Shown here in pieces: positions 874 to 59,191 of a stretch of DNA of 64,000 bases. This DNA is from Spirosoma linguale DSM 74 (GTDB taxonomy: Bacteria; Bacteroidota; Bacteroidia; Cytophagales; Spirosomataceae): contig CP001769.1 in NCBI GenBank assembly GCA_000024525.1, positions 6,977,001 through 7,041,000 of the forward strand. The letters are read 5' to 3'. Within the stretch, counting starts at the first letter, position 1. Every line of letters begins with the position of its first letter. A program made the translations under genes and the position numbers. The notes beneath the pieces were generated by a model. The model was not told the DNA's origin and ran no database searches. It saw nothing but the letters and a program-made list of their open reading frames with translations.

Positions 874-946
874 GTACGAAACAGCCTCTGGCTGTTTGTG
901 AGTAGGTACTTGCCTGACACACAAACAGCCAGAGGCTGTTTCGTAC
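874..946. repeat. Perfect 27-bp inverted repeat between convergent genes
   Basis: Arms 874-900 and 920-946 are exact reverse complements with a 19-nt loop. Each arm contains its own palindrome, AAACAGCC-TCT-GGCTGTTT. There is no T-tract, so a plain intrinsic terminator is unlikely to be the whole story, although it lies between convergent genes. The design of a palindrome inside each arm recurs elsewhere in this window. Confidence 0.9.
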
Positions 947-954
947 ATATGGCC

Positions 955-1782
955 CTACCGCCGATTAATCGGGTAATTGAAGCCGAACTGGTATTTGTAT
1001 TGAAGTGAGTAGAAATGGTGCGTGGCCAGCCCCTGTTGATCGACCCCCAGCCGGGTGTTGGTGTAATCGGCCCAGGCCCCCTGAAAGTCCGATTGTAAAA
1101 AGAAGTACCTAAAAATATCCAGTCTAAGCCCGGCGCTTAAGGCGGCTACCATACCGTGATAATGAAAAGGGCCTTCCTGCTTGTTGCCTAGTATAGTCGA
1201 GATGGTGTAAGAGATGAGCGGTCCTCCGCCCACTTTGCCAATAGCACTTAAATCAAGGTTTTTGGCATGCCATAGCTTTTTTCGCTTGATCAGGTTAAGC
1301 ATCAGGTAGTTATTGCCGTTGGTGTGCTGAAGGTGTACGAAGTCTGGTGTTACCAGCGTGTCTTTGTCAATCTGATGGCCCCTTATCTGGCCCTGTACGT
1401 GAATAATCTGGTTATCGGTGACAATGTATTTTAGGTGATCCCAGCTTAGTTCAATACCCAAATCGTGCTTATCGTTGAAAAAATAACCCGCATTCATGTC
1501 GTATTGCGGAACGGTCAGGTTATCAAGTTTATAAAAGTCGTGTAAATCCGGACGGTCGTGGGCTTTCGCCTTGATAAACGTAAAATCGTAGTTATCGGTC
1601 GTGGTATTGCGAAAATGAATGGTACTGGCGGTGTACCATTCCCGGTTGTAGCCCCAGGTGAAATAAAAGCTACCGGGCTGTTTTCCTAATGTAAACGTTT
1701 TGGCCGAAAGGGGCTGTTGTGCGAAAGCTGTTTGAGAGAGGCAATAGAAAATTAAAGGCACAAGTAAACGTGTCTGCTTCAT
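955..1782 (-). CDS. Putative outer-membrane beta-barrel protein
   Basis: No named family is recognised. The protein starts with a clear Sec signal peptide ending in AFAQQ. The rest is rich in alternating hydrophobic/aromatic strands and Gly/Asn turns, and it ends in strand-like segments (QYKYQFGFNYPINRR), as expected for an outer-membrane barrel of about 270 residues. I chose the ATG at 1782 (MKQTRLLVP) over a TTG four codons upstream because the signal peptide fits better. It lies downstream of the small lipoprotein gene on the same strand, separated by a hairpin, so it is probably transcribed alone. Confidence 0.7.
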   Translation of the reverse strand: MKQTRLLVPLIFYCLSQTAFAQQPLSAKTFTLGKQPGSFYFTWGYNREWYTASTIHFRNTTTDNYDFTFIKAKAHDRPDLHDFYKLDNLTVPQYDMNAGYFFNDKHDLGIELSWDHLKYIVTDNQIIHVQGQIRGHQIDKDTLVTPDFVHLQHTNGNNYLMLNLIKRKKLWHAKNLDLSAIGKVGGGPLISYTISTILGNKQEGPFHYHGMVAALSAGLRLDIFRYFFLQSDFQGAWADYTNTRLGVDQQGLATHHFYSLQYKYQFGFNYPINRR

Positions 1783-1870
1783 AGAGTTTAACAAGAACGG
1801 TGGTATGTGAGGTATGTACCTCGGTAGATGAAGCGCAAAATAGCTTCATGAGTTCCTGCGAGCCCTATAC

Positions 1871-1910
1871 AACAGGAAAGTACCAACCCATTAGTTGGTA
1901 CTTTCCTGTT
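1871..1910 (-). terminator. Hairpin after the small lipoprotein gene
   Basis: Perfect 17-bp arms, 1871-1887 and 1894-1910, with a 6-nt loop. It begins 12 nt past the stop of the leftward lipoprotein gene. No U-run follows, so termination is inferred from position only. Confidence 0.5.
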
Positions 1911-1921
1911 CAGTCAGTTGC

Positions 1922-2113
1922 TTACCAGCCGGGACGACCATAGTTGCCATAGCCATACCCTCTGTAACCACCATAGGGGCGGGGTGGAGGACCATGATGC
2001 CGACGTCCATACGTATTGACAGGACGGTTTGTGTAATAGGTTGGTCCACAACTGCTAACCGATATGAGCAGCAGCAAAGCCACTATATATCCGAGCATTT
2101 TTGACGTTTTCAT
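1922..2113 (-). CDS. Small Gly/Tyr/Arg/Pro-rich lipoprotein
   Basis: A 63-residue protein with a signal peptide and lipobox (VSSC, Cys22), so the mature part is only about 42 residues and lipid-anchored. The mature part is low-complexity: Gly, Tyr, Pro and Arg in short YGGYRGYGYG-type runs with an HHGPPPRP stretch. Small lipoproteins of this composition are common in Bacteroidota and have no established function. An opposite-strand frame over the same bases (1895-2104) is a shadow; the signal peptide and lipobox support the minus strand. Confidence 0.7.
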   Translation of the reverse strand: MKTSKMLGYIVALLLLISVSSCGPTYYTNRPVNTYGRRHHGPPPRPYGGYRGYGYGNYGRPGW

Positions 2114-2230
2114 AACCAGCGAATTGTGTTTTTGAGCAATTCGATAGTTAGATAAGCTGGCTAATCGTTCGATTAAAACGAGCTGGTTAAGCTTTGGTTA
2201 AAGTTTTGTGCGTGTAGTCTAACGTGGCAG

Positions 2231-2352
2231 GCTGGCGTGGGTGTTGGGCGGTTGGCGCGGGTTTGAACCCGTGCCTTTTATTAAGTCAGTATTCACTGAC
2301 GCAAGCAAATGCTTGCTATATCAAAAGGCACGGGTTCAAACCCGCGCCAGCC
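2231..2352. repeat. Structured intergenic repeat, family G copy 1
   Basis: Most of the gap 2114-2443 is this element. Outer arms 2250-2279 and 2323-2352 pair over 30 bp with one mismatch. Each arm holds a palindrome (CGGGTT-TG-AACCCG). The loop is not free: it contains hairpin GTCAGT-ATTC-ACTGAC (2285-2300) followed directly by GCAAGCA-AA-TGCTTGC (2301-2316). The whole would fold as a long stem closing two small hairpins. A second copy lies at 59078-59191 with the same core and different arm sequence. The rest of the gap shows nothing recognisable. Confidence 0.85.
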
Positions 2353-2443
2353 AGCAGCTACACGACCTGCGCCAGTTTAAAATCCTAAACGTTTGGCTTA
2401 CCTTCACAGTTTATTAGCGGTAAGCACCATCCTCCTCGGTCTA

Positions 2444-4579
2444 ATGCAGTTTAGAAAATTTCGTCTCGCTTTGCTGGCAACCTCTTGCCTGGCATTCCTG
2501 GCTGGCCCGGCGTCAGCGCAAACGACCACCGATACAACCAAAGGTGGCCCGCTCGATCTGGGAAAAATGTGGACCTTCGATAGTCCACCGTCCGCCTATT
2601 TTAAGAAAACCTACAACTTTACCGCCGATGAAAAGTGGTTCGACGAAGCGCGGTTGGCTTCCCTGCGATTTGCTGATTACTGCTCAGCGTCGTTTGTGTC
2701 GGCCAATGGGTTGGTGATGACCAACCACCACTGCGCCCGTGAGTCGGGTACGGGCGTAACCCGAAAAGGCGAAGACCTGAATGCAACCGGATTCTTTGCC
2801 AAAACACCCGCCGAAGAGCGGAAGGTGGATGGCCTGTTCGTTGATCAACTGGTGAAGCTTCAGGACATCACCAAACAGGTGCAGGACGCCATGAGTGGCG
2901 CAACTTCCGAACAGGCGCAGTTGCAGGCCCGTGAGCAGGCGTTTTCGGCCATTAAGCAGGAGTATGGTACAAAAGAAGGCTGGAAAGGACTCGAACTTCA
3001 AACCATCACGTTTTATAACGGAGGCCGTTATGCGTTGTATGGCTTCAAACGATATACCGATGTGCGGCTGGTGTTTATGCCTGAGTTACAGCTTGGCTTC
3101 TTCGGGGGCGATTACGACAATTTTACCTACCCGCGTTATGCCCTCGACTGCTCGTTTTTTCGAGTATATGACGGCGGCAAACCGTTGAAAACAACTCATT
3201 TTTTTAAGTTCAATATGAACGGTGTTCGCGATGGCGAACCCATTTTTGTGATTGGAAATCCCGGCCATACCGAGCGGCTCAAGACCGTTGCCGAACTTGA
3301 ATTTGACCGGGATTTGCAGACGCCCGCTACTATTCAGATGCTCCGTAACCGTTCGGCGGCTTTACAGGCTTATAATGCTACGGCGAAGAATGACAGCGTG
3401 CTGAACGAGATTTTCAGCTATGAAAATAGTCTGAAAGCTTACGGCGGTCAGCTCGAAGGGCTGCGCGATGCCAGTTTGCTGAACCGTAAGGTGGTATTTG
3501 AGAATCAGTTCAAAGCAGCAGCCAAAGCTAAAAACCTGCCCGCCGATCAGCTGAAAACGTGGGATGAACTGGCTGCCAATACCGCACAGCTACGGAGTCT
3601 GTTCAAAGACGCGAACTACCTCGGACCCAGCGAGCGCACTATGGGCGAGCTGCTGACCTTCGCCAATGTTGTTACCCAGTTTAGCGAGTTACTGGCTACC
3701 CGCCCGCAGGATGCCGAACGGGCTCGCTCGCTGATGGTTACGCCAGAGGTGAAAAGTATGGCGCTGGAAGAAGCGTATCTGGCAGCTCACCTGACCGAAG
3801 CACAGCTTGGTTTAGGAAATGACGATCCGTATGTGAAAGCTGCCTTGACCGGTACCAACGGTAAGCGGCTAACTCCCAAAGAGGCCGCAGCGTACCTTGT
3901 GAAAAATACAAAGTTGACCGATCCGGCCTTCGTGAGTGAGCTATCGACCCGACCCAATGCCGCAGCGGCCTCCAACGATCCTATGCTGGCGCTGGCGCGA
4001 ATTGGGTTTCCCCGCTACCTGGCAGCCGCCCGTCAGGCCCGTCAGATTTCGCAGAAGCAGGAGGTGCTTCGTGGACAACTGGGCCGGATGTTGTATGATG
4101 TATACGGCACCGCTGTTCCACCCGACGCTACCTTCTCGCTGCGGATCAACGACGGTGTGGTGCAGTCCTATGATTACAATGGTACGAAAGCGCCTATTCT
4201 GACGACCTTCGCGGGCTTGTATGATCGTAATTACTCCTTCGCCGATAAAGCGCCCTGGAATTTGCCTGCCCGTTGGAAGAGTCCGCCCATGGAATTACTG
4301 AAACAACCCATGTGCTTCATCTCGACTAATGATATCATTGGCGGTAATTCGGGTAGTCCGATGATCAATAAAAACCTCGAGGCCGTTGGGCTAGCCTTCG
4401 ACGGGAACATGGAGAGTCTGCCCGGCGAGTTCATCTTCGTCCCCGACCGTAACCGAACCATTTCGGTGCATACAGGCGGCATCATTGCGGCCATGCGGTA
4501 TATTTATAAAGCAGATCGGCTGGTTAGCGAGCTGACGGGTACGCCGGTAACAGCGAAGCCCAAACCAGTAAAAAAATAG
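2444..4579 (+). CDS. S46 family serine peptidase, DPP7-type dipeptidyl-peptidase
   Basis: A 711-residue secreted or periplasmic exopeptidase that removes dipeptides from peptide N-termini, a typical amino-acid scavenging enzyme of Bacteroidota. The ATG at 2444 is preferred over the one at 2393 because it directly starts a signal peptide (MQFRKFRLALLAT...ASAQ). The catalytic His is in TNHHC (about residue 95). The catalytic Ser is in GGNSGSP (Ser636). Length agrees with DPP7/DPP11. The residue 18 positions after the catalytic Ser is Gly (AFDGN). In the family this position is Gly in DPP7, with broad hydrophobic preference, and Arg in the Asp/Glu-specific DPP11. I therefore infer DPP7-like specificity. 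Confidence 0.93.
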   Translation: MQFRKFRLALLATSCLAFLAGPASAQTTTDTTKGGPLDLGKMWTFDSPPSAYFKKTYNFTADEKWFDEARLASLRFADYCSASFVSANGLVMTNHHCARESGTGVTRKGEDLNATGFFAKTPAEERKVDGLFVDQLVKLQDITKQVQDAMSGATSEQAQLQAREQAFSAIKQEYGTKEGWKGLELQTITFYNGGRYALYGFKRYTDVRLVFMPELQLGFFGGDYDNFTYPRYALDCSFFRVYDGGKPLKTTHFFKFNMNGVRDGEPIFVIGNPGHTERLKTVAELEFDRDLQTPATIQMLRNRSAALQAYNATAKNDSVLNEIFSYENSLKAYGGQLEGLRDASLLNRKVVFENQFKAAAKAKNLPADQLKTWDELAANTAQLRSLFKDANYLGPSERTMGELLTFANVVTQFSELLATRPQDAERARSLMVTPEVKSMALEEAYLAAHLTEAQLGLGNDDPYVKAALTGTNGKRLTPKEAAAYLVKNTKLTDPAFVSELSTRPNAAAASNDPMLALARIGFPRYLAAARQARQISQKQEVLRGQLGRMLYDVYGTAVPPDATFSLRINDGVVQSYDYNGTKAPILTTFAGLYDRNYSFADKAPWNLPARWKSPPMELLKQPMCFISTNDIIGGNSGSPMINKNLEAVGLAFDGNMESLPGEFIFVPDRNRTISVHTGGIIAAMRYIYKADRLVSELTGTPVTAKPKPVKK

Positions 4580-4610
4580 AGAATTATTGCGCTATTGGCA
4601 TTTCAGGCCG

Positions 4611-4655: not shown

Positions 4656-4674
4656 GCCTTTATACGATCTGCTA

Positions 4675-5196: not shown

Positions 5197-5198
5197 AC

Positions 5199-5277
5199 GT
5201 ACCTACGGGCCGGGCCGCGTTCGGCTTCAGCCCGTATTTTATGGTACTGCCATTTACGGACTAAAGTCCGTAGGTAC
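5199..5277. repeat. Nested inverted repeat after dinB
   Basis: Outer arms GTACCTACGG (5199-5208) and CCGTAGGTAC (5268-5277) are perfect. Inside the right arm lies ACGGACT-AA-AGTCCGT, a 7-bp hairpin. The left half carries a related but longer CGGGC...GCCCG palindrome. Same design as the 874-946 and 2231-2352 elements. Confidence 0.75.
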
Positions 5278-5330
5278 ATTCAGCCTCGTCACTCAATACA
5301 CGTACTTATTCAACAATCATCCAACACTTC

Positions 5331-8347: not shown

Positions 8348-8389
8348 ACGTCTTTAACCTGACATGCATCAGGTTAAAGACGTTTTTTT
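8348..8389 (+). terminator. Intrinsic terminator
   Basis: Perfect 15-bp stem (8348-8362 with 8369-8383), 6-nt loop CATGCA, then a run of seven T. The T-run doubles as the first bases of the next inverted repeat. Confidence 0.9.
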
Positions 8390-8461
8390 GTAGTGCCGAC
8401 CGTCCCGGTCGGTAGAGAACTGACTTCACGACCGACCGGGACGGTCGGCACTACAAAAAAA
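8383..8461. repeat. 31-bp perfect inverted repeat, family T copy 1
   Basis: Arms 8383-8413 and 8431-8461 are exact reverse complements with a 17-nt loop. The arm contains TGTAGTGCCGACC and the palindrome CCGACCG-TCC-CGGTCGG. Related copies lie at 20380-20467 and 57435-57525. Confidence 0.9.
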
Positions 8462-18657: not shown

Positions 18658-18690
18658 GAACTTGTCGTGTTGGTTTAAAAAATAGAATTG

Positions 18691-18787
18691 TGACACAGAG
18701 CTACACGGAGGAGCACAAAGATTCAAAGAGGTGCTTATTAAATTCTTCTCTGTGAATCTCTGTGCTCCTTAGTGTAGCTCTGTGTCA
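18691..18787. repeat. 40-bp imperfect inverted repeat between prfB and lpdA
   Basis: Arms 18691-18730 and 18748-18787 match at 36 of 40 positions with a 17-nt loop. The arms are built of CACAGAG/AGCACA-type words and hold no internal palindrome. It lies between divergent genes, so it is not a terminator. Confidence 0.85.
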
Positions 18788-18851
18788 TAACACAAAGATA
18801 GAACAAATCAAGCTGGGGTAAGGGTTTGCGTCGGGTATCAACTTTTCGGCC

Positions 18852-20336: not shown

Positions 20337-20380
20337 CATATAAACGGCCGGATTGACATGTCAATCCGGCCGTTTATATG
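20337..20380. repeat. 44-bp perfect palindrome after lpdA
   Basis: Bases 20337-20358 and 20359-20380 are exact reverse complements with no spacer (centre GACATGTC). It follows the lpdA stop by 19 nt. The centre would open to a small loop in RNA. No T-run follows. Confidence 0.9.
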
Positions 20381-20467
20381 TAGTACCGAGCGTCGGCCCG
20401 GCGACCGTCCCGGTCGGGTGTATTTCTATCTAACTGATTCACACCCGATCGTGCCGCTCGGTACTAC
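20380..20467. repeat. Inverted repeat, family T copy 2 (partly decayed)
   Basis: Outer arms GTAGTACCGAGCG (20380-20392) and its complement (20455-20467) are perfect. Inner TCGGGTGT/ACACCCGA also pair. The left half has extra GACCGTCCCGG sequence matching the other two copies. The glycosyltransferase stop codon lies in the right arm. Confidence 0.8.
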
Positions 20468-21204
20468 GTCAAAACCTTCCAGTTAAACACACCGATTTTG
20501 GTTAGAAAGTAGAGGAATGAGGTTCGTAATACGCCAAGACCGTAGATCGAACTGCGCCGAAAATTAATGGACGAAGCTTCCTCAAAGTATTTGGTAGGGC
20601 AGGTGACTTCGCCGATTTCGTAGCCTTTATAGAAAATCTGGGCTACCATTTCGTTGTCGAAGATAAAATCGTCGGAGTTATGGGTAAAATCCAAACTGCG
20701 CAGGACCTCGCCCGAAAAAGCCCGATAACCGGTATGGTATTCGGACAGTTTCTGATTCATCAGCAGGTTTTGCGAAAAGGTCAGGAAACGGTTGGCAATG
20801 TATTTATACATCGGCATGCCTCCTTTCAAAGCCCCTTTCCCCAGAATACGCGACGCAAACACAACGGGATACAATTCGTTGCCAATAATGGAAATTATAG
20901 CGGGCAATAGGAGAGGAGTATACTGATAATCGGGGTGGAGCATAACGACAATGTCGGCCCCAAGTTCGAGAGCTTTGGCATAGCAGGTTTTCTGATTGCC
21001 GCCATAGCCTTTGTTCCGGTCGTGCCGGATTATATGCCGAATACCTAGTTGTCTGGCTACTTCGACCGTATTGTCTGGGCTGGCATCGTCAACTAAAATG
21101 ACGTCATCGACTAAATCGAGCGGAATTTCTCGGTAAGTGCGTTCCAGCGTCAAGGCTGCCCGGTAGGCGGGCATCACGACAATTACCTTCTTATTATTAA
21201 ACAT
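20464..21204 (-). CDS. Glycosyltransferase family 2 (DPM1-like)
   Basis: A 246-residue GT-A fold enzyme. VVMPAYRAALTLERTY at the start, VDDASPDNT (nucleotide binding) and the HPDYQ metal motif place it with polyprenyl-phosphate mannose or glucose synthases. The acceptor-site HTGYRAFS follows. Unlike longer relatives it has no pair of C-terminal membrane helices. Such enzymes load a sugar onto a lipid carrier for surface glycans. The stop codon, TAG at 20464-20466, is inside an intergenic repeat, so the last residues depend on the repeat sequence. Confidence 0.9.
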   Translation of the reverse strand: MFNNKKVIVVMPAYRAALTLERTYREIPLDLVDDVILVDDASPDNTVEVARQLGIRHIIRHDRNKGYGGNQKTCYAKALELGADIVVMLHPDYQYTPLLLPAIISIIGNELYPVVFASRILGKGALKGGMPMYKYIANRFLTFSQNLLMNQKLSEYHTGYRAFSGEVLRSLDFTHNSDDFIFDNEMVAQIFYKGYEIGEVTCPTKYFEEASSINFRRSSIYGLGVLRTSFLYFLTKIGVFNWKVLT

Positions 21205-26178: not shown

Positions 26179-29100
26179 TTGCGTTATAATCCTGCCTATC
26201 AGAAAAATCCTGTGGAAATCCCGGTCCAGACTGTACTAAAGACATTCCGTCGACGCTTAACCAACCTCAGCAGCCGTAATCGGTCGCTTTTACTGACAAG
26301 CTTACCCGCAGGTCAGTTTCTGGACTTACAGGAAACGGATTTCCTGCTCAACAAACCGGCCTTTTCCATCATTACCGACCTTATTGCTCGGAAAGGGTCA
26401 ATTTCGTTGTGCGATGTGCTCGACCCACGCCAGGAGCGCAGCAACGAGGTGAGCCAAAAGCTACGACGTATTGACCGCACCGCCCGATTTATCGAAGAGG
26501 AGCGGGGTACGGAAGATTTATACGTGGGCTGGCCGTTTGTGAAGGGGAAATTTATGGACGACTCGGTCGTTCACGGACCGCTCCTGTTTTTCCCCGTTCA
26601 GATTGAGCAGCAGGGTAAGGGCTGGAAACTTACGCGCCGGGGTGATGAACTGGCCTTCCTGAACCCAACCTTGTTGATGGCCTACGGGCAATTTAACCAA
26701 GTGAAACTGACAGACGAGATCATCGAAAAATCAGTCGACGATTTTGACCGAGACCCGCTTGTATTCCGTACCCAGCTTTACGAATGGCTCAAAACCAGCC
26801 CGCTCGAACTGAATTTCAATCAGGAGCTTTTCACCGATAAACTTCAGTTTTTCAATAAGCAAAGTGCCAAAGACCTCTCCCAGCTCGAACGCACCGGTGA
26901 GTTAAAGCTCTACCCCGAAGCCGTCCTGGGTATCTTCCCGCAGGCAGGATCGTTCCTTGTCCCGGATTATGAAGGGCTCATTTCAAGGAGCGAGGGCTTT
27001 TTAAGGAGCCAGGAGTTAGGAGCGAGGAGTGAGGAGCCATTCGGTGGTGAAGGGTTTTCCAACTCACTTTTTTCTTTTTTGCTCCCGAATGGCTCCTTGC
27101 CGCCGGATGGCTCCTCACTCCTCGCTCCTCGCTCCTCGCTCCTTAAAGAAAAACACCTCCACACCCCCCTGCCCATGGATGCATCGCAGGAGACGGCGGT
27201 GCGGGCAGTGAAAGAAGGGCAGTCCCTGGTGGTGCAGGGACCACCGGGAACGGGGAAGTCGCAGTTGATCGCGAATTTGATGGCCGATGCCGCAGCATCC
27301 GGGAAACGTGTTTTGCTTGTTTGCCAGAAACGGGCTGCGCTGGACGTTGTGCAGCATCGGCTTGAAGAAGTGGGCATGGCTCCCTTTCTGGCATTGGTAC
27401 ATGATTTTCAGAATGACCGACGGGCCCTTTTCGCCCAGATTGCAAGCCAGATCGAGCAGATCGACGCCTATCGCCAGCAGAATAACGGATTGAACGCCGT
27501 CCTGCTGGAGCGTGATTTTGACGTGGAGAGCCGTCGCATTGATGACACCATTGCCGAGTTACAAGCTTTCAAGTCGGCGCTGTTCGACACCGCTGAAAGT
27601 GGCGTCTCCGCCAAAGAGTTGTACCTGAAGTCGCCTTCCGGTGAGGGTTATCAACAGTTGATCGACTTGAGCGATAGTTATCCACAGTTTCGTTTGGATA
27701 ATGTGGATAACTATCGGCAACGTTTAGCCAATTACACGGCTTATCAACAGGCATTAGGCCCTGACCATAGCTGGGCGGAGCGGGTCAACTTTTCTGACTT
27801 TACCAATGCCGACTTAAGCAAGGCTGATTGGGTAATTGTACATTGGGAGCAAACCCGGCAAACAACCGTTGACCAAATGACGAGTTTGTTAGGTCGTTCG
27901 CTTCCACTTAGTGAACTCCTTTACTGGCAGGCACACGATTGGGATTTAACGGCCCTTCTGCGTTTTTTGGATGCGCCAGACGCCACCCAGTTATGGGAAA
28001 CCACCCGGTATTTACTCGCCAATGCTACCCACCCGGCGCTAACCATTGATGAAACCCGTTTTGAGCATCTGGCAATCAGTTGGGAAGAAGCTACCGACTC
28101 GCCCGGCCCCGAAACGTCTTTGCCAACGCCTGACCTGAGAGCCTTCCGGGATATACTGGCCGATGCACTCACGGCCCGCTCCTCGTGGGTGAGCTGGAAC
28201 TGGTGGCAGTTAACGCATTCGGGAAAAACACAGCTTCAAACGGTCATCTCAGCTAATGGGTTGACACTTTCCGAGCCGGATTTAAACACGCTTGCCACGA
28301 AAATAAACCAGCGAATAAAGCTCGAAGCCATCCGGCATGAAGCTAATCCGTTGCTGGCCGGACTACCGCTCCCTGAAGCGCCGGGAAGTTTACGGCTGCT
28401 GCATCGGGCGCGTCACCTGGCCGAGCGCTTGACTACGCTTAATCTACTGCGTCAACTGCCGGGACCGCTTTGGCAAACACCGGTTCAATTCGCGGAAAGC
28501 GTGCGGATGATGATGCAACTCGCAGCTACGGTTACGCAGCAACAGGCAGAATCGGCTAGGTATCTCACGGCTGATCAGCTAGTGAAAATATGGGAGGACA
28601 GTGCCTATGCAACGGAACTTCGTCGGAAACTGCGGGATGACTTTGATTTACTCGTTGAAGCGGATCGGTTGCAGGCTGGTTTTTCAGACGCGGAGAAAAC
28701 GGTTATCGACCAACTGAAAGACTATGAGCCCGCCCGATGGCCAGTTATTTTTATGAATAGTTTGCGGGCCGCCTGGCTCGATCATATTGAGCGGCTATAT
28801 CCTGAACTTCGAGCCGTGTCGTCGCTCAAAATGAATCAGCTTGAACAGACGTTGCAGGAGAGTATCCGGCGGAAACAGGCGCTAAGCCGGGAAAATCTGC
28901 TGGTTAAACTTCGCGAGCAAACGTATCGGAATCTGACCTTCAACCGCCTGAACAACGTCGTTACCTACCGTGATCTGCAACATCAGGTGACCAAAAAACG
29001 CAGTGTGTGGCCGGTGCGGAAACTCATGGAATCCTTCTCCGACGAAGTGTTTAAGCTGGTGCCTTGCTGGCTGGCCTCGCCCGAGTCGGTATCGGCGATG

Positions 29101-47583: not shown

Positions 47584-47675
47584 TGAAATAGTTAGGAGAA
47601 ATAGAAAATTTATTTTAAAGAAAGTTTGGTAGTGTGTTTTTATGGTTGATGTTGAGATCATCCCGATGTCTGTTC

Positions 47676-47743
47676 GGTCGCTATGCGACCAAGAAAGCGT
47701 GTTGTTCATTGAGATGCTACAAACATCTCGTCGCTAACGCGAC
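47676..47743 (+). repeat. REP-like unit A
   Basis: Palindrome GGTCGC-TAT-GCGACC (47676-47690), then 47717-47743 ending in GTCGC-TAAC-GCGAC preceded by CTACAAACATCTC. The 27-nt end is exactly inverted in unit B. Confidence 0.85.
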
Positions 47744-47874
47744 TGTGCTAGCTCGGTCAGGGATCTCCTTGGTGTTCTAAGCAGTCAGCTCACAATATCT
47801 TTTGCCTTAGTGCGCTTTAGCGACTATAGTAACTAAAGAAAGGAGCACCTTCTACTATAGAAGGTTGACGTTCG

Positions 47875-47940
47875 GTCGCGTTAGCGACGAGATGTTTGTA
47901 GTATAAGTGCCATAATCATATCTCTCGTCGCGTAGCGACG
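47875..47940 (-). repeat. REP-like unit B
   Basis: Inverted copy of unit A: 47875-47901 is the exact reverse complement of 47717-47743, and CGTCGC-GTA-GCGACG lies at 47926-47940, 5 nt from the transposase stop. Between A and B (47744-47874) only a small hairpin is seen at 47847-47865 (ACCTTCTA/TAGAAGGT). Confidence 0.85.
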
Positions 47941-47945
47941 GAACG

Positions 47946-48407
47946 TCATTCCAGCGGTTTAAAAAGATAACGTTCATCGTAATCCACCTTAAACTTCTGC
48001 AAAAAAGTGACATACTCTTCTGCGAATGTTCGTTTTCGGTGATGCTCTTCCTGATTTACGATATACTTAACGACAGCGTCAATTTGTGAATGACTATATG
48101 AAAAGGCACCATATCCTGCTTGCCACTCGAAGTGCCCCTTGACCAAACGCTTATCATTAATCCATTTCGAAGAGTGACCTTTTATGTCCTGCATAAGTTC
48201 AGAAATGGATTGTTTAGGGTTGATGCCTATGAAAACGTGAACATGATCTGGCATTCCATTAATGGCTAGGAGCTTATGATCCTGATTTTGTACGATGCCA
48301 GTCATATATCTGTATAAATCTTCTTTCCAAGGTTGTAGTATGAGGCCATAACGGTGCTTGACCGCAAAGACGGTATGTAAATAAATTTGAGTGTAGGTGT
48401 TTGGCAT
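47946..48407 (-). CDS. Y1 (HUH) transposase, IS200/IS605 TnpA or RAYT type
   Basis: A 153-residue single-strand DNA transposase. The metal-binding HUH motif is His55-Val-His57 in PDHVHVFI, and Tyr115 in VVKYIVNQ is the likely nucleophile that forms the 5'-phosphotyrosine link. I use ATG 48407 (MPNTYTQIYL) rather than the ATG seven codons upstream because family members start this way. No TnpB partner is present. The gene is flanked on both sides by inverted REP-like units (B and C), the arrangement of REP-associated transposases that move REPs rather than themselves. An IS200-type insertion with hairpin ends is the alternative. The frame looks intact, so the enzyme may be active. Confidence 0.88.
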   Translation of the reverse strand: MPNTYTQIYLHTVFAVKHRYGLILQPWKEDLYRYMTGIVQNQDHKLLAINGMPDHVHVFIGINPKQSISELMQDIKGHSSKWINDKRLVKGHFEWQAGYGAFSYSHSQIDAVVKYIVNQEEHHRKRTFAEEYVTFLQKFKVDYDERYLFKPLE

Positions 48408-48433
48408 GTTTCTTAGACGAGGATACATCCGTT

Positions 48434-48502
48434 TGGTCGCTACGCGACCATAAATAGGGCTAATTCATCTTGGTGCTACAAACATTAGGTCGCTAACGCG
48501 AC
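48434..48502 (+). repeat. REP-like unit C
   Basis: Palindrome TGGTCGC-TAC-GCGACCA (48434-48450), then 48476-48502, which equals the unit A end except for three bases and contains GTCGC-TAAC-GCGAC. Confidence 0.85.
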
Positions 48503-48563
48503 TAAGTCGGAGAATAAATAGGTAATTGGGGCGGGCCTATTCGGGCCAATAGTTAACCTTATA

Positions 48564-48632
48564 GTCGCGTTAGCGACGAGATGTTTGTAGCCTAGTCAGT
48601 ATCACCAGTGTATCCCTCGTCCCGTAGTGACG
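48564..48632 (-). repeat. REP-like unit D
   Basis: 48564-48590 is identical to the 27-nt core of unit B. 48618-48632 (CGTCCCGTAGTGACG) is a decayed form of unit B's second palindrome. From 48633 to the next gene nothing is recognised except a TAGGTTTG -7 match at 48736-48743. Confidence 0.85.
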
Positions 48633-48795
48633 TAATGCTTGTACGTGCGCAAGGTTGTTCATTCAGTTTCAACTGGTTGATAGAATTCACTCGTTCGATT
48701 CAAGAATGTAGAAATAACAAATCCTATAAAACAGTAGGTTTGGGCATTTCTTTCATTTGTTGACTTATCGCAACCGCCCGAATCTTGTTTCATTC

Positions 48796-53346: not shown

Positions 53347-53413
53347 TTACACAAAGCGGCACTGGGAACACAATGAATAGATTTCTTTGTGTTCCCAGTG
53401 CCGCTTTGTGTAA
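53347..53413. repeat. Perfect 27-bp inverted repeat after the M16 pair
   Basis: Arms 53347-53373 and 53387-53413 are exact reverse complements with a 13-nt loop. It begins 12 nt after the stop. There is no T-run, but the stem could still end transcription or protect the 3' end. The arms have no internal palindrome. Confidence 0.9.
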
Positions 53414-53420
53414 ATAACCC

Positions 53421-53428
53421 TACCTTTG
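53421..53428 (+). promoter_or_regulatory. Promoter element of the cobalamin operon
   Basis: TACCTTTG fits TAnnTTTG, placing the start at about 53435, right at the 5' edge of the riboswitch. Confidence 0.5.
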
Positions 53429-53436
53429 TCATCGAG

Positions 53437-53626
53437 TTATCGGTGCCTGATGCTGCTTCGTAGCGGCTTTCAAGGCTTAAAAGGGAAGTTGGTGTAACGC
53501 CAGCGCTGTCCCCGCAACTGTAAGTCTTACCTAAAATCGGTTCAATCTACATGACCACTGCGCTGACCGCCAGCGTGGGAAGGTCCGATCCGATAAGACG
53601 AGCCAGGAGACCTGCCGAAGACCATC
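53437..53626 (+). ncRNA. Cobalamin riboswitch
   Basis: The aptamer core is clear: AAAAGGGAAGTTGGTGTAA, then CGCTGTCCCCGCAACTGTAAG, then GGGAAGG and the 3' conserved GAGCCAGGAGACCTGCC with GAAGACCA. This is the adenosylcobalamin-sensing class that shuts off B12 uptake genes when B12 is plentiful. Bases 53627-53721 would be the expression platform; no U-run terminator is seen there, so control of translation start is more likely. Confidence 0.95.
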
Positions 53627-53721
53627 CGTTGTTCTGGCGTTCGGAGGAAACGCCCCAACCGCGTGCTATTGGTCAGCGACTTTATCCGCTGACAACTTGA
53701 TGCACATTTTTCAACGATACA

Positions 53722-55656
53722 GTGAAAAAGAGAGCCCTTTTTTGGTGGCTATTGGTACCGTTTGTCGGTCAATTTATGGCGTATAACGGATATGGGCAAA
53801 CGGATTCGTCGGTTGTGTCCTTATCGGCAGTGACCGTTCGGGCCATCGCGCCCGAACGGTTTCTGGCCGGGCAGAAGCTCCAGCGCATCGACTCGGCCAC
53901 CCTGCTTCAGTTTCGCTTTGGTTCGCTGACCGATCTGCTGGCGTTGAACACGCCGATGGCCTTTAAGAATTACGGACCGGGTCAGTTGGCTACGGTGGCT
54001 TTTCGGGGTACATCGGCCAGTCATACTGCCGTTCTCTGGAACGGCATCAACATCAACCAGCCGAATCTGGGCCTGACGGATTTTTCGACTCTGCCCGTAG
54101 CGGGTTTCGACCGGCTGACGGTGCAATACGGCTCGTCGGCAAGCGTAGTTGGCTCTGATGCCGTGGGCGGTAGTATTCTGCTGGGTAGTAATGCCGTTTG
54201 GAAGCCGGGTGTTCAAGTGACACTGGGTCAGCAACTCGCCAGTTTCCAGAATAACCAGACGCAACTGGGCGTTCGCTACAGTATGGCTCTGGGGGCTGAC
54301 TGGAAACTATCGGGCAAGACATTTGCCTATCGAAACCAATTCAACAATGCCTATCCATCGGCCGAACGCCGGAATTATTTTCTGGAGCAGTCTACCACCG
54401 CACAGCGGGGTCTGGTTCAAGATCTATATTTCATGCACAAAAGCGGACGGCAACTGTCAGTGAATGTGTGGCTGACCGACAACGACCTGATCCTGTCGCC
54501 GAAGGATACCATCGCCCGGGAGCGTACTCGGACGCAATCGGCGCGTTTTCTCACAACGTACGAAACGAACCATTTAACGCTCCGGTTGGGCTGGATTCAT
54601 GACGTACTTGATTACGCCAAGGGTAATTTTGATCTGCCAAGCCATACCGAAACCGATCGGTTTATCAGCCGTGTCGAGCGGGAGTTTGTATTAACGCCCG
54701 TTACGGCTCATGTTGCCTTAAATCTGCGCATTGGTGGCGAGTGGTCGCACTACCGCACCCGGACGGATGGGTATGTCCGGCCGCTGATTGAGGAAGATCG
54801 GGGGGATGTCTATGCGTTACTGCGACTGCAAACGGCTCGCTGGCTGGTATCGGCCAATCTGCGCCAGGCATTCGTTACTCATTTCAATCCGCCCCTCACA
54901 CCGTCGTTGGGGGCTGAATACCGGTTGGTACAACATACTAAGTTCGGCCTGACAGCTAAAACCGCCATTAGTCGCAGCTATCGGGTGCCAACCCTCAACG
55001 AACGATACTGGGCCGATTTGGGCAATCCGAATCTGTTGCCCGAAAACGGGTTCAATATAGAGGCCGGACTAGCGTCGACGCTGGCTATTCATGAACATCT
55101 TACGTTAACCTCCGAAGCGACTGTCTATCGCAATCGGGTGGATAACTGGACGTACTGGAATCCAACCACTAATTATCACGTCGAGAATCTGCAACTGGTT
55201 GTTGCCCGTGGGGGCGAGTTGACCATTAATCTGGCGTATGCGCGTGACAGTTGGCGGGCGGGCCTCCGGGCGGGATATGCCCTGACGCGTTCCTCGCAGG
55301 AGCGGGCGTATGATGCCTACTCGCAGGATGTGATCGGCAAGCAGCTGGTTTATGTGCCGCTGCATACCGAAACCCTCAACGCGTATGTGCAGCGGGGCCA
55401 AACCCGGCTGACGGTGCAAACTCAGGTCAATTCCCGGCGGTACATCACGTTCGACAATAGCCAGTTTTTCAAGGGGGCAACGCTAACGAATGTGTTGCTG
55501 GAAACAACCGCTAAAATCGGTCCGGTGCCGGTTCGGGTGCAGGGCCAGGTCAATAATGTATTCGATGCGCTGATGTTCAGCGTAAAACGGAACGCCTTGC
55601 CGGGACGCAACTGGGCACTTAATCTGCTTATCAATTTACCAAATAATACCCAATGA
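53722..55656 (+). CDS. btuB: TonB-dependent vitamin B12 receptor, BtuB-like
   Basis: A 644-residue outer-membrane receptor, started by GTG at 53722 with a signal peptide ending NGYGQ. The plug (about 30-150) includes VAFRGTSASHTAVLWNGINI, and the barrel ends in LNLLINLP. The riboswitch directly upstream, rather than the barrel sequence, identifies B12 or a related corrinoid as cargo. The next gene overlaps its stop by 4 nt (ATGA), indicating translational coupling. Confidence 0.92.
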   Translation: MKKRALFWWLLVPFVGQFMAYNGYGQTDSSVVSLSAVTVRAIAPERFLAGQKLQRIDSATLLQFRFGSLTDLLALNTPMAFKNYGPGQLATVAFRGTSASHTAVLWNGININQPNLGLTDFSTLPVAGFDRLTVQYGSSASVVGSDAVGGSILLGSNAVWKPGVQVTLGQQLASFQNNQTQLGVRYSMALGADWKLSGKTFAYRNQFNNAYPSAERRNYFLEQSTTAQRGLVQDLYFMHKSGRQLSVNVWLTDNDLILSPKDTIARERTRTQSARFLTTYETNHLTLRLGWIHDVLDYAKGNFDLPSHTETDRFISRVEREFVLTPVTAHVALNLRIGGEWSHYRTRTDGYVRPLIEEDRGDVYALLRLQTARWLVSANLRQAFVTHFNPPLTPSLGAEYRLVQHTKFGLTAKTAISRSYRVPTLNERYWADLGNPNLLPENGFNIEAGLASTLAIHEHLTLTSEATVYRNRVDNWTYWNPTTNYHVENLQLVVARGGELTINLAYARDSWRAGLRAGYALTRSSQERAYDAYSQDVIGKQLVYVPLHTETLNAYVQRGQTRLTVQTQVNSRRYITFDNSQFFKGATLTNVLLETTAKIGPVPVRVQGQVNNVFDALMFSVKRNALPGRNWALNLLINLPNNTQ

Positions 55657-56708
55657 ACTACCAACCAACGAAAGGAATCCTGCTTGGCTTGCTGGCCTTA
55701 AGCCTCTGGAACTGTAAAACCTCCGATCCAGAGCCAACGCCGTATGAGTCGGGTGTGCTTATATTGAATGCCGGTAATTTCTTCCAGAATAACGGTACGA
55801 TTTCGTTTCTTCCACGGACGGGAAACACAGTCGCCACTAACATTTTTCAAGCCGCAAATCCATCTCTAGCCCTTACTGGTGGTGTGCAGGGCTATACCGA
55901 AGTGAATGGCAAAGGTCTGATTCTGGTCGATAACAGCACCGCTGGTCAGGATAAGGTTGAAATTGTCGAGTATAACACATTTAAGTCACGCGCTACCCTG
56001 AAAACGCCGGATATTGAAAACCCACGTCAGGTTATCCCCGCAGGCCCCAACAAGGCATATGTTAGTTGCTGGGACGTTTCCGGCGATTTCAATGCCGGTA
56101 CGTTCTATAAAGACCCCGGTTATATAGCCGTCGTTGACTTAAACACCAATACAGTCGTTAAAAAAATACCGGCGGTCAAAGGTGTTGAAAATATGGTCGT
56201 TGCCGGAACGGAAGTGTTTGTGGGCAGCGGCAGTTATACTGGCAGCAAGACATTATTGATCATTGACCTGAACACCGATACGGAGAAACAACGGATTGAC
56301 TTTGGCGCAACGCCCGAGCCCATTGCAGTCGATGCAACCGGGAAGCTGTGGATACAGGCGGGTAATGATCTGGTACAGATCGACCCGGCAACCCGGCTTG
56401 TTGCCAAACGGTGGACCTTTCCGACCAGACCCGGTTCCGTTACGATCAGCGCCGACAAACGGACGTTTTACTACACACAGAGTGGAAAAACCTATCGGAT
56501 AGGCGTCGACGCAAATGCCGCATTAGGTAGCCAGGTAATAGGCCGTTCGTTCACTGCGCTGGGTATCGACCCGCAAACCAAACGAATTTACGGAAGTGTA
56601 ACTCCATCGCAGGCACAGACGGGGTACGTACTTCGCTTTGAAGAGAGTGGTGCCCTGATTGACTCCGTCAGAGCGGAAATTGCCCCTTCCGGGTTTTATT
56701 TCCGATGA
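55653..56708 (+). CDS. Surface beta-propeller lipoprotein, BtuG-like
   Basis: A 351-residue lipoprotein (lipobox LWNC, Cys21). The mature part repeats YVTN/YncE-like blades: VDLNTNTVVKKIP, IIDLNTDTEKQRIDFG, QIDPATRLVAKRW. In Bacteroides the surface lipoprotein BtuG is a beta-propeller next to BtuB that binds cobalamin very tightly and passes it to the receptor. The place in a B12-riboswitch operon, the overlap with btuB and the fold all fit, so a BtuG role is inferred. It overlaps the next gene by 4 nt. Confidence 0.85.
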   Translation: MNYQPTKGILLGLLALSLWNCKTSDPEPTPYESGVLILNAGNFFQNNGTISFLPRTGNTVATNIFQAANPSLALTGGVQGYTEVNGKGLILVDNSTAGQDKVEIVEYNTFKSRATLKTPDIENPRQVIPAGPNKAYVSCWDVSGDFNAGTFYKDPGYIAVVDLNTNTVVKKIPAVKGVENMVVAGTEVFVGSGSYTGSKTLLIIDLNTDTEKQRIDFGATPEPIAVDATGKLWIQAGNDLVQIDPATRLVAKRWTFPTRPGSVTISADKRTFYYTQSGKTYRIGVDANAALGSQVIGRSFTALGIDPQTKRIYGSVTPSQAQTGYVLRFEESGALIDSVRAEIAPSGFYFR

Positions 56709-57439
56709 GTCGGCAGCGAGCCATTATGAACTGGAGCGGGGGCAAAGATTCAGCCCTCGCTCTGTATCATAGCCTCCGTTCGGAACGGTGGGTGATACAA
56801 ACGTTGCTGACCAGCGTGAACGAGCAGTTTGGCCGGGTGAGTATGCATGGCGTCCGCACGGAGTTGCTGGCCGCCCAGGCCGACCGGCTGGGTATTCCGT
56901 TGACGCTACTGAGCCTGTCCGGCGATGTGTCGATGGAAGAATACGACGCCCGGATGCAGACGAAACTTCAGTCATTGACGCAGCAGGGTAGTACCCATTC
57001 CATTTTCGGGGATATTTTTCTGGAAGACCTTCGTCAGTATCGGGAAACCCAGTTGCAGCGGGTGAATCTCACCGGCGAGTTTCCCCTTTGGCAGCGCAAC
57101 ACGACCGAGCTGGTCCATGAGTTTGTGGATTTAGGTTTCCGGGCGGTGCTCGTCTGCGTTAATGACAAACAACTCGGTGCCGAGTTTGTCGGGCGTGAGC
57201 TGGATTTGGACTTACTCAAAGACCTCCCCAAAACCGTTGACCCTTGTGGTGAAAATGGCGAATACCATTCATTTGTCTACGACGGTCCCATCTTTGCCAG
57301 TCCTATACCGTTCGTAAAAGGCGAAATCATTCACCGTTCGTATGCGCCCTCGGGCGGCACCGACTGCCACTCCGACCAGCCCGACAGCCGTTGGGATACG
57401 GGATTCTGGTATCAGGATTTAGTAGTACCGAGCCTGTAG
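56705..57439 (+). CDS. Dph6-like ATP-dependent PP-loop protein
   Basis: A 244-residue adenine-nucleotide alpha-hydrolase. The PP-loop SGGKDS is at residues 11-16, and the C-terminal CGENGEYHSFVYDGP is the MJ0570/diphthine-ammonia-ligase-type signature. In eukaryotes and archaea Dph6 completes diphthamide on EF-2, which bacteria lack, so this copy must do something else. It is the third gene of a B12-riboswitch operon, with 4-nt overlap, so a role in corrinoid handling, perhaps an ATP-dependent amidation, is suggested by context only. Its last five codons and TAG stop lie in or next to an intergenic repeat. Confidence 0.88.
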   Translation: MSRQRAIMNWSGGKDSALALYHSLRSERWVIQTLLTSVNEQFGRVSMHGVRTELLAAQADRLGIPLTLLSLSGDVSMEEYDARMQTKLQSLTQQGSTHSIFGDIFLEDLRQYRETQLQRVNLTGEFPLWQRNTTELVHEFVDLGFRAVLVCVNDKQLGAEFVGRELDLDLLKDLPKTVDPCGENGEYHSFVYDGPIFASPIPFVKGEIIHRSYAPSGGTDCHSDQPDSRWDTGFWYQDLVVPSL

Positions 57440-57525
57440 TGCCGACCGTCCCGGTCGGGTGTTTTGGGCGGTTTGCTGTACTCACCCGACCGGGACGGTT
57501 CGATGCTTCTACGGTCGGCACTACA
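57435..57525. repeat. Inverted repeat, family T copy 3
   Basis: Left arm 57435-57461 (TGTAGTGCCGACCGTCCCGG...). The right arm 57483-57525 pairs with it but carries an extra 14 nt (57499-57512) in the middle. GTAGTACCGAGC just before the left arm matches copy 2. Lies between convergent genes and contains the stop codon of the upstream gene. Confidence 0.85.
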
Positions 57526-57537
57526 AGCCCGGAACCA

Positions 57538-59064
57538 CTACTTCCGAGTCGTATTTTCCAGCACCACCAGCGGCAGGTAACCATTCCAGGTGGGAGTGAA
57601 CTTCACTTCGTTCAGGAAGCCCATTGAGAAATTGCCCAGTACAATATCAGTATCGCCGTCGTGGTCCCAGTCGTTGGCGTCCATGCAAATCCAACGGCCG
57701 TATGAACTGATCGGGACGGCATGCGGTGTAAAGGCAAGGGGTTTGTTTTGCTCGAAGTAAATAAATGTTTCGGCGGGGTTGTTTTTTAAATCGCCGAAGA
57801 AAGCGATGCTGGCAATATCGAGATCGCCGTCCAGGTCGAAGTCTTTCGCGATGGCTTTGGTGCAGCCATTGACAGGGTAGAACCAGGTTTGCTTATAGCG
57901 GAAGTTACCCTGATTGGTGAAGATGTAAACGCCGTGAAAACGCTTCAGAATGCGGGAGTAGTCGCTGTTGTCGCCACAGGTGTACAGAATATCCAGTTTA
58001 CCGTCTTTATTGAAATCAACCAGTTGGAAGCTTGTGGAGCCGTAAACGGGCGGAAACCGTAGTAAGTTTTGCTCTGAAAAGCTGCCTTTCTGGTCATTAG
58101 TGAATAGCCAGATACCTTCGTCGGCATGAGCGAACAGGGCCATGAAGTCGAGCCAGCCATCGTTGTTGAAATCGCCGGGTATGACCTGCGTAGCACCCGC
58201 AATTTCTTTGATAATTACTTTCTCGAATTGATGGTCCGGGCGTTGCCTGAGCCAGTATAAGCCGCCCGCTTCGTGACCAAAGCCACATACGATGTAGTCG
58301 GTCAGACCGTCTTTGTTGAAATCGCCCGGTGTTGTGTCAATCGGGCGGGGGAGTTGACTGGCCAGCACAACCGGTGCACTCTCCGGCGTTCTGGCCAATG
58401 TTAACTCCAGAATTTCACCTTTGGGCTGGTCAACGGCCAGCATCGTTCCTATACAGGTGAGTAATGCACGTTGCGCCCCATTCCCATTCGGCAGAACCCG
58501 GGCCTGTACAGCGGGCGATGGTAACGTCCGGACCAGCGTTGGTTTCAAGTCGGTGCTCCATCGATACAGTCCCGCGCTGGTTTCATTACTCGTATAAATC
58601 TGACGGCTGGCCGAATCGAACGTAACCATCGTTGTGGTCGAAACTTCGCTCTTGATTTCTGCCGGTTTATGTAATTTGAAAATGGACCAGTCGTTGACCA
58701 GCGGCACTGATGGTGATGCCTTGATTGGTTTCTCGGGTGCCAGCGATTCATAGTAATTCTGCAGTTTAATCCAGTCGGTCTGCTTGATCGAAGCCGTTGG
58801 TGGGAAGTAGTAGTTGGTCTTTTGCCATACTTCCAGCCCCAGCTTAAGCGCCATTGCGGGCAATACCCGTTTGTGCCAGGTTTCTTTATCCAGCGCATCG
58901 GGTGCCACGGGTAAATGGCAATTGCTGCAGTATTGCTGCGCCAGGCGTTCGCCTTCGGTAATGATTGGGTCTTTGGCGGTTGAGGTGTCGTTGTCGGATT
59001 GGCAGCCGAGGCTAATCCAGACAAGGAGACAACTGAAAAAGAGTAGTAATAAGAAGGCTCGCAT
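57538..59064 (-). CDS. Lipoprotein with cytochrome c motif and FG-GAP/VCBS repeats
   Basis: A 508-residue lipoprotein (start ATG 59064, lipobox Cys21). A haem-binding CSNCH lies at residues 46-50. After it comes a propeller of FG-GAP/VCBS repeats with Ca-binding-type loops: DFNKDGLTD, DFNNDGWLD, DFNKDGKLD, DLDGDLDIA, DWDHDGDTDI. A longer frame starting at 59103 would begin inside a repeat element and lose the signal peptide at the start. The gene follows susD on the same strand but a terminator stands between. Such proteins are found in redox or polysaccharide-related clusters; the actual role is unknown. Confidence 0.85.
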   Translation of the reverse strand: MRAFLLLLFFSCLLVWISLGCQSDNDTSTAKDPIITEGERLAQQYCSNCHLPVAPDALDKETWHKRVLPAMALKLGLEVWQKTNYYFPPTASIKQTDWIKLQNYYESLAPEKPIKASPSVPLVNDWSIFKLHKPAEIKSEVSTTTMVTFDSASRQIYTSNETSAGLYRWSTDLKPTLVRTLPSPAVQARVLPNGNGAQRALLTCIGTMLAVDQPKGEILELTLARTPESAPVVLASQLPRPIDTTPGDFNKDGLTDYIVCGFGHEAGGLYWLRQRPDHQFEKVIIKEIAGATQVIPGDFNNDGWLDFMALFAHADEGIWLFTNDQKGSFSEQNLLRFPPVYGSTSFQLVDFNKDGKLDILYTCGDNSDYSRILKRFHGVYIFTNQGNFRYKQTWFYPVNGCTKAIAKDFDLDGDLDIASIAFFGDLKNNPAETFIYFEQNKPLAFTPHAVPISSYGRWICMDANDWDHDGDTDIVLGNFSMGFLNEVKFTPTWNGYLPLVVLENTTRK

Positions 59065-59077
59065 TTGATTAGGAAAG

Positions 59078-59191
59078 CTGGCGTTGGAGGTTGGCGCGAG
59101 CATTAGCTCGTGCCGTTTTATGAAGTCAGTATTCTCTGACGCAAGCGAATGCTTGCCAGATAAAAAGGCACGAGCTAATGCTCGCGCCAGC
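59078..59191. repeat. Structured intergenic repeat, family G copy 2
   Basis: Outer arms 59092-59114 and 59167-59189 pair perfectly over 23 bp and each holds CGAGC-ATTA-GCTCG. The loop carries hairpins GTCAG...CTGAC (59125-59140) and GCAAGC-GAAT-GCTTGC (59141-59156). The 34-nt core differs from copy 1 at only two positions, while the arm palindrome is different in sequence. Confidence 0.85.

What the first reader, a model, noticed from the sequence alone, without database searches (positions are those of the whole stretch)
874..59191. Intergenic inverted repeats whose arms are themselves palindromes, sharing a design with the REPs around the Y1 transposase
Seen: the elements at 874-946, 2231-2352, 5199-5277, 8383-8461, 57435-57525 and 59078-59191 each consist of two inverted copies of a unit, and each unit holds a GC-rich hairpin with a 2-4 nt centre (AAACAGCC-TCT-GGCTGTTT, CGGGTT-TG-AACCCG, ACGGACT-AA-AGTCCGT, CCGACCG-TCC-CGGTCGG, CGAGC-ATTA-GCTCG). 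The four units at 47676-48632 have the same plan (GTCGC-TAAC-GCGAC in opposed pairs) and surround a Y1 transposase gene. Known: REP-associated tyrosine transposases move REP palindromes arranged in opposed pairs. Inference: several sequence families in this genome are REP/BIME-like elements mobilised by such enzymes.
Basis: partly seen in the sequence, partly recalled or inferred. Interest (0 to 1): 0.8.

Follow-up and report, generated by a model that had tools for sequence, protein, structure and literature searches.

The report
Transposase-linked paired DNA hairpins between genes
The odd double palindromes between genes in this bacterium belong to several repeat families, each tied to its own hairpin-handling transposase gene; this kind of system is known, but one family shows a precise hairpin plan and changes its letters while keeping its folds.

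Summary
The six elements fall into four families (A, B, D, E), and each matches the hairpins flanking a particular Y1 gene elsewhere in the genome; the A, B and D genes are open, the E gene is broken in two frames. The window's own Y1 gene is IS200-like and its four units are a fifth, low-copy family (F). Across the genus, hairpin family follows transposase clade. Family A shows no target duplication. Its stems vary between copies but stay paired (281 of 292 tested pairs); at 8 orthologous sites 9 of 14 changed stem pairs changed on both sides, while the core changed at 2 of 160 positions. A G·T wobble at a near-fixed stem position recurs beside related genes in 21 of 34 other Bacteroidota loci, which defines REPs so far called 'atypical'. 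Inverted symmetry extends about 24 nt into copy-specific flanks; why is open. Movement was not observed.

The parts
874..946 (.). Family E element: two opposed copies of AAACAGCC-TCT-GGCTGTTT between convergent genes
   Evidence: like the hairpins flanking the E-type Y1 genes L235, L240, L242, L212 and the own pseudogene
2252..2350 (+). Family A element: outer hairpins 2254-2275 and 2327-2348, core 2283-2302
   Evidence: partner gene at L005; an A core lies at the matching place in G007 (C6:231483)
5199..5277 (.). Family D element: expanded left unit and regular right hairpin 5255-5272
   Evidence: partner gene L430; regular D pair at the matching place in G007 (144408-144473 of the fetched stretch)
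8383..8461 (.). Family B element, GTAGTGCCGACCG-TCC-CGGTCGG in opposed pair, flanked by T7 and A7
   Evidence: partner gene L007; degenerate B remnants at the site in G027 and G007
20379..20468 (.).
47673..47744 (+). Family F unit 1 (two hairpins)
47872..47941 (-). Family F unit 2, opposed to unit 1
47946..48428 (-). IS200-like Y1 transposase gene (160 aa; DHVH, YIVNQEEHH)
   Evidence: PF01797 104.9 bits; NF033573 81.2 bits, cut-off 55; sequence
48434..48503 (+). Family F unit 3
48563..48633 (-). Family F unit 4
57435..57525 (.). Family B element with interrupted right unit
   Evidence: a B pair lies at the matching place in G007
59091..59191 (+). Family A element: outer hairpins 59093-59114 and 59167-59188, core 59123-59142
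   Evidence: absent at the matching site in G027

Best explanation
The elements are non-autonomous REP doublets (REPIN/BIME-like) of several families, each read as a folded single strand by its own Y1 (HUH plus tyrosine) transposase encoded elsewhere in the genome: A by the gene at G000:C1:5514088-5514630, B by 6139142-6139771, D by the gene at 6581618-6582256, E by a now broken gene at 6142735-6143381. In family A the enzyme most likely reads a constant hairpin foot with a G·T wobble that marks the strand, and needs the upper stem only as a paired structure, so that stem letters change in pairs while foot and core stay constant. The F units in the window belong to a separate, syntenic IS200-like gene. 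Shown: linkage of families to genes, match of clade and family, hairpin covariation, the wobble, absence of target duplication in A, some presence/absence between species. Inferred: recognition, cleavage and movement by these enzymes.
For: Partner genes flanked by the family hairpins. In a 40-row transposase tree each hairpin label seen in two or more rows falls in one clade. A cores are frequent in 4 of 36 genomes, three of which hold an L005-type gene, open, altered or broken. Stem pairs of A formed in 281 of 292 cases against about 156 when shuffled. Orthologous sites: 9 double changes that keep pairing, 5 one-sided. Wobble: left foot G·T 61 of 62, right A·C 57 of 61 readable. Model of L005 (pLDDT 92.5) matches 4er8, the REP transposase with its hairpin, best of all PDB chains (E 1.1e-7); L005 and L006 pass NCBIfam NF047646. 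G027, where no open class-2 gene was found, has 2 nested palindromes against 18 here.
Against: No movement was seen. E and F have few copies. G007 has 16 A cores and no L005-type gene; G032 has 52 B hits and no B-type gene was found; both need gene loss or another enzyme. L007 and L430 score below the NCBIfam cut-off (71.8 and 70.9 against 80). 13 of 34 related Bacteroidota loci lack the wobble hairpin. Several 'empty' sites in relatives hold remnants. G008 has a broken L005-type gene yet all 84 tested stem pairs formed, so the stems may not need the gene, or the loss is recent.
Confidence: 0.87

Rival explanations
1. The nested symmetry is made and kept by replication itself: strand switching inside quasi-palindromes copies one half-stem onto the other and one arm onto the other. 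The transposases spread the elements but do not shape them. (The mechanism is recalled, from no call.)
For: Arms of one A element are identical in 35 of 73 against 7.6 shuffled, loop letters included (44 of 73 against 20.6). Symmetry runs on into flanks that are not part of the family (A offsets 2-12: 386 of 946 against 267; 13-24: 336 of 1032 against 283; nothing beyond 24). Stems stay paired in G008, where the gene is broken.
Against: At changed orthologous stem positions both arms changed in 4 and only one in 4, so arms are not copied reliably. Foot and core mismatches (G·T) are preserved, although such copying would remove them.
Confidence: 0.3
2. The hairpins are kept by the host as transcription terminators or RNA stabilisers; the genes only supplied them.
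For: 19 of 20 elements are intergenic; 8 of 19 lie between convergent genes, where 33 of 175 gaps of 50 nt or more are convergent. Some sites hold different palindromes in three species. Stems stay paired at orthologous sites.
Against: 7 of 19 are in tandem and 4 in divergent gaps. A fixed G·T/A·C strand asymmetry and a conserved inner core are not needed by a two-way terminator. Each family is tied to a gene.
Confidence: 0.2
3. They are MITEs of a cut-and-paste DDE transposon.
For: Small, with inverted ends and many copies.
Against: A (86 elements): no direct repeat of 3 nt or more at the ends; the only excess is 10 shared dinucleotides against 3.8. B (21 elements): 2 repeats of 5 nt or more near the ends against 0.5 (shuffle maximum 3), 1 of 4 nt against 0.1, so B is less clear. 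The families flank Y1 genes.
Confidence: 0.02

Closest known systems
REPINs / BIMEs with RAYT (TnpAREP) genes (PMC3116915 passages, PMC2817692 passages and section 7)
   Same: Opposed hairpin pairs between genes, one hairpin family per transposase gene, gene flanked by its own hairpins, stems that change yet stay palindromic
   Different: Family A keeps an inner two-hairpin core and varies the outer stems; several families, one of them with a broken gene, coexist here; symmetry runs into the flanks
TnpAY1 subclass 2.6 = RAYT group 5 of Bacteroidota (PMC6006769 passages and section 12)
   Same: L005 and L006 have NHxH and YIHxNP motifs, about 180 aa, and hairpins without GT[AG]G
   Different: The paper calls the structures atypical and weaker; here they are strong hairpins with a G·T wobble about 6-8 pairs from the loop and a constant foot
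TnpAY1 subclass 2.4 (PMC6006769 passages)
   Same: L007, L430 and relatives: NHVH, YVLNNT or YTLQNP, 214-222 aa, with B hairpins preceded by GTAG and 'double foot' ends
   Different: D and E hairpins are preceded by GTAC-type letters rather than a clear GT[AG]G
TnpAY1 subclass 1.2, IS200-like (PMC6006769 passages)
   Same: Window gene: DHVH and YIVNQEEHH resemble DH[IV]H and YIKNQKEHH (motif level only)
   Different: Listed there without REPs; here four palindromic units flank it, and F hits lie beside the related gene in G007, G008, G011, G015, G022 and G032

Membership tests
REPIN/BIME | Many intergenic copies | tested here: met
   A 31, B 112, D 50 hits; 19 of 20 intergenic. Not met for E and F, which have few copies
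REPIN/BIME | Two hairpins in opposed orientation | tested here: met
REPIN/BIME | Family-specific transposase gene flanked by the same hairpins | tested here: met
   A, B, C, D genes and the broken E gene
REPIN/BIME | GT[AG]G at the hairpin foot | tested here: inconclusive
   B has GTAG; A has CTGG; D and E have GTAC-type letters
REPIN/BIME | Excision or insertion caused by the transposase | not testable with these tools
   only presence/absence between species
RAYT / TnpAREP (L005) | HUH motif and catalytic tyrosine | tested here: met
   H59, H61, Y143 of the aligned sequence invariant in 22 sequences
RAYT / TnpAREP (L005) | Family model and fold | tested here: met
   NF047646 112.5 bits, cut-off 80; best PDB match 4er8
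RAYT / TnpAREP (L005) | Single copy per genome | tested here: met
   one L005-type gene in G000; next hit is L006 at 48%
RAYT / TnpAREP (L007, L430) | Family model over cut-off | tested here: not met
   71.8 and 70.9 bits, cut-off 80, best model for both
IS200/IS605 insertion sequence (window Y1 gene) | IS200-type transposase | tested here: met
   NF033573 81.2 bits, cut-off 55; ISDra2 and IS608 structures by sequence
IS200/IS605 insertion sequence (window Y1 gene) | Multiple mobile copies | tested here: inconclusive
   similar distance from the same peptidase gene in five relatives (38.9-54.5 kb, here 45.5) suggests a fixed place; other IS200-like genes (L002-L004) are present but distinct
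DDE MITE | Target site duplication | tested here: not met
   0 of 86 A elements with a direct repeat of 3 nt or more; B (21) less clear

The most novel reading that the evidence does not exclude
Family A hairpins undergo active conversion: a process copies stem and loop letters between the arms of one element, and outward into unique flanking DNA, so that a fixed genomic site keeps foot and core but changes its stem allele in a coordinated way. If the REP transposase drives this by cutting at the hairpin foot and rejoining, it is a hairpin-allele exchange activity beyond transposition.
Probability: 0.18. Interest if true: 0.72.

Novelty: new variant of a known kind. Interest (0 to 1): 0.5.

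Why it matters
How REP transposases recognise and spread their repeats is still open (PMC8266576 passages). This genome offers five class-2 family-gene pairs (A, B, C, D open, E broken), and its sisters hold the same genes open, broken or not found, so the effect of a gene on the number and state of its repeats can be compared. For the Bacteroidota group whose REPs were only called atypical, a wobble foot, a constant core and a free upper stem give a concrete recognition model to test. Symmetry that spreads into unique flanks points to insertion into hairpins or to growth of palindromes; both can be tested.

Tried and rejected
Chance palindromes: rejected by the Markov controls. DDE MITEs: disfavoured. 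Insertion of B into existing hairpins as a general rule: single sites looked so, but only 1 of 21 B copies has 6 or more perfect outer pairs; the average excess is real, its cause open. One partner gene in the window for all families: rejected. E and D as families without a gene here: held after the Pfam search, withdrawn. Identity between the two B arms: none in 21 elements (first letter 57% against 51%), but 21 of 30 pairs read off a truncated list agree in the outer three letters against 8.9; unresolved. Rfam gave one cobalamin riboswitch only. Sequence search of the PDB with L005 gave nothing; the fold search did. Literature searches (held open-access library only) listed no paper on these repeats in this group; 'quasipalindrom' with 'repetitive extragenic palindrom' gave none. 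Bertels 2017 is known to me only through PMC6006769 and recall. Papers seen: PMC6006769 outline, passages, section 12; PMC2817692 passages and section 7; PMC3733652, PMC8266576, PMC3116915, PMC8049555, PMC3686654 passages. No call names the organism; a Cytophagales-like Bacteroidota is my inference.
Full report
Observation. Two are imperfect: 5199-5277 has one regular and one expanded unit, and 57435-57525 has an interrupted right unit. A de novo scan for inverted repeats whose arms each contain a hairpin found 18 in own C1:6840001-7140000, 11 in the syntenic stretch of G007, 2 in that of G027, and none in three Markov sequences. A further B-type element lies at about 20379-20468.

Families and partner genes. 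The own genome (8.49 Mb) has 7 Y1 genes by PF01797. Pattern hits on both strands: A core 31 (control 0), B 112 (control 4), D 50 (control 0), E 14 hits at 8 places, of which about 5 look like the family (control 1; stem variants such as CAGACAGC and CCGACAGC seen were not counted), F 6, four of them in the window (control 0). The gene at L005 is flanked on both sides by A elements, L007 by B, L006 by family C. A protein search with the E-type gene of G007 found a D-type gene here that Pfam had missed (20.6 bits, cut-off 23) and the E-type gene broken into two frames. The D-type frame is 222 aa between stops (one search lists 611). It is flanked by CACGGGTTTTAACCCGTG and CACGGGTTGAAACCCGTG on one side and TACGGGCTGAAGCCCGTA on the other; the E pseudogene is flanked by CCGACAGCATCTTGCTGTCGG pairs. 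So families A, B, D and E each have a partner elsewhere in this genome. The window's own gene is IS200-like, lies at a similar distance from the same peptidase gene in five relatives, and its F units form a separate low-copy family.

Genus-wide match. Of 36 genomes, 29 have a Y1 match, 143 matches in all. I looked at 76 loci (7 own, 29 fetched, 40), of which 60 scored 60 bits or more against an own-genome Y1 protein and were scanned for flanking hairpins; 18 more loci were scanned. Related genes carry the same hairpin family. I labelled rows from those scans and then built a 40-row tree: the B rows (5), D rows (4), E rows (4) and the A, C, I, J and M rows each group together. Seven rows had no clear hairpin label (L237, L243, L246, L247, L248, L251, L252) and say nothing either way; L232 was labelled A from the adjacent core. 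IS200-like genes other than the L001 to L004 types mostly showed no shared hairpins. A cores: G000 31, G015 24, G008 19, G007 16, G027 4, the other 31 genomes 0 or 1. The L005-type gene is open in G000, 87% identical with a changed end in G015, broken in G008 and not found in G007 or G027. That reads as gene loss after spread, which is inference. B is frequent in G000, G007, G015, G032, G003 and G022 (106, 105, 53, 52, 51, 36) with 19 in G027; no B-type gene was found in G032, and that of G022 is in two pieces.

Anatomy of family A. Outer hairpin GGCGCG-stem-CGTGCC, inner hairpin GTCAGTATTCACTGAC, inner hairpin GCAAGCGAATGCTTGC (or a longer variant), outer hairpin inverted. Of 98 core matches in loci from five genomes, 4 were the same element read twice; of the remaining 94, 73 had a readable 10-nt variable part in both arms and 21 were dropped. 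Pair 1-10 is formed in 70 (left) and 68 (right) of 73, against 39.1 and 44.7 when shuffled; pair 3-8 in 71 and 72, against 36.1 and 36.3. Variants are mainly G-C/A-T and T-A/C-G exchanges, with few G-T intermediates. The two arms are identical in 35 of 73, against 7.6 (11.1 when shuffled within genomes, maximum 22). Where arms differ at pair 1, both hairpins are intact in 9 of 15; at pair 3 in 11 of 14. Hairpin pairing is the tighter constraint, arm identity the looser one.

Orthologous sites. Eighteen pairs of A elements share at least one flank, 11 share both, and 8 of those have full arms. Between species, 48 stem-pair comparisons gave 34 unchanged, 9 changed on both sides and still paired, 5 changed on one side; 21 of 64 loop positions changed; the 20-nt core changed at 2 of 160. 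Of the 16 comparisons at the two variable stem pairs, 8 had no change, 4 changed in both arms and 4 in one. The element, its foot and core stay; stem alleles turn over with pairing kept. Nunvar 2010 reported retained palindromicity for REPs beside orthologous genes, so the principle is known; here it is seen at dispersed copies. Selection on pairing, conversion between copies and template switching all remain possible.

The wobble. In family A the fourth foot pair is G·T in the left hairpin (61 of 62 readable) and A·C in the right (57 of 61 readable; 94 elements examined). L006, L239, L244 and L249 hairpins carry G·T or A·C at the eighth pair. A scan of genome contigs with the L005 protein kept 80 of 306 loci; I examined 34 Bacteroidota ones. 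Their flanks hold 114 hairpins of 8 pairs or more, against 11, 13 and 10 in shuffled flanks. In 21 of 34 a hairpin has one mismatch at the seventh pair from a 3-nt loop: GT 32, AC 15, CA 1, other 3. Thirteen loci do not show it, some with a different mismatch (L334, L350), and loci of one genus are not independent. In E. coli a stem bulge is needed for activity and only one strand is recognised (PMC8266576 passages). By analogy the wobble would tell the strands apart; this is inference. Quentin 2018 says that subclass 2.6 lacks GT[AG]G and has weaker structures; the hairpins here are strong.

Enzyme. L005 and L006 pass the NCBIfam model for REP-associated tyrosine transposases; L007 and L430 match it below cut-off; L001 to L004 are IS200 transposases. 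Two histidines and the tyrosine are invariant in 22 L005-like sequences. The predicted fold (pLDDT 92.5) matches 4er8 best (E 1.1e-7, TM 0.65 by the query).

Sites and symmetry. Of 20 elements in the 300 kb (18 from the scan, 5199 and 57435 added by hand; genes called by my own script) 19 are intergenic: 8 convergent, 7 tandem, 4 divergent; gaps of 50 nt or more number 33, 109 and 33. Family A shows no target duplication. The A element at 59078 is absent in G027; the D element at position 205541 of the stretch is shared with G027 and absent in G007; several sites hold different palindromes in different species. Some apparent empties hold remnants, for example the B site at 258872 in G027, so clean empty sites are few. 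Outside the family ends, copy-specific flanks are more complementary than expected in A over about 24 nt (386 of 946 against 267, then 336 of 1032 against 283, then nothing) and in B over 12 nt (96 of 252 against 68.6). Twelve of 86 A copies have 6 or more perfect outer pairs; some are extra A-like units or simple repeats. I cannot tell insertion into hairpins from later extension.

Verdict. A known kind of system, REP doublets with family-specific Y1 transposases, with several families in one genome. New here: a defined hairpin plan for the Bacteroidota group-5 type, palindromic units beside an IS200-like gene of a type listed without them, and an unexplained spread of symmetry into flanks.

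Noticed in passing
window 53424-53633: Cobalamin riboswitch (RF00174, 103.6 bits); a 31-nt inverted repeat lies just before it at 53347-53413.
   Followed up: no
G000:C1:6139142 and 6142735; G007:C8:287181 and 283568; G015:C1:2795930 and 2792386: B-type and E-type transposase genes lie about 3-4 kb apart in three genomes and are sister clades, which suggests a tandem duplication whose hairpins then diverged.
   Followed up: partly
L002, L003, L004 (own genome): Three more IS200-like Y1 genes, each with its own short palindromes nearby (for example GTCCCGTAGGGAC, AACCGTTTCAACGGTT); copy numbers not counted.
   Followed up: no
L232, L278, L291, L312, L316, L008: A-family variants with a longer GC-rich insert in the outer hairpin, mirrored in the other arm in some (L291) but not in others (L008).
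   Followed up: no
L440-L445, L447 (relatives): A distant Y1-like group with long, nearly perfect hairpins about 115-300 nt from the matched stretch.
   Followed up: no
window 27000-27147 and 18688-18790: Two long inverted repeats, one made of AGGAGTGAGGAG-like simple sequence, not of the families described.
   Followed up: no
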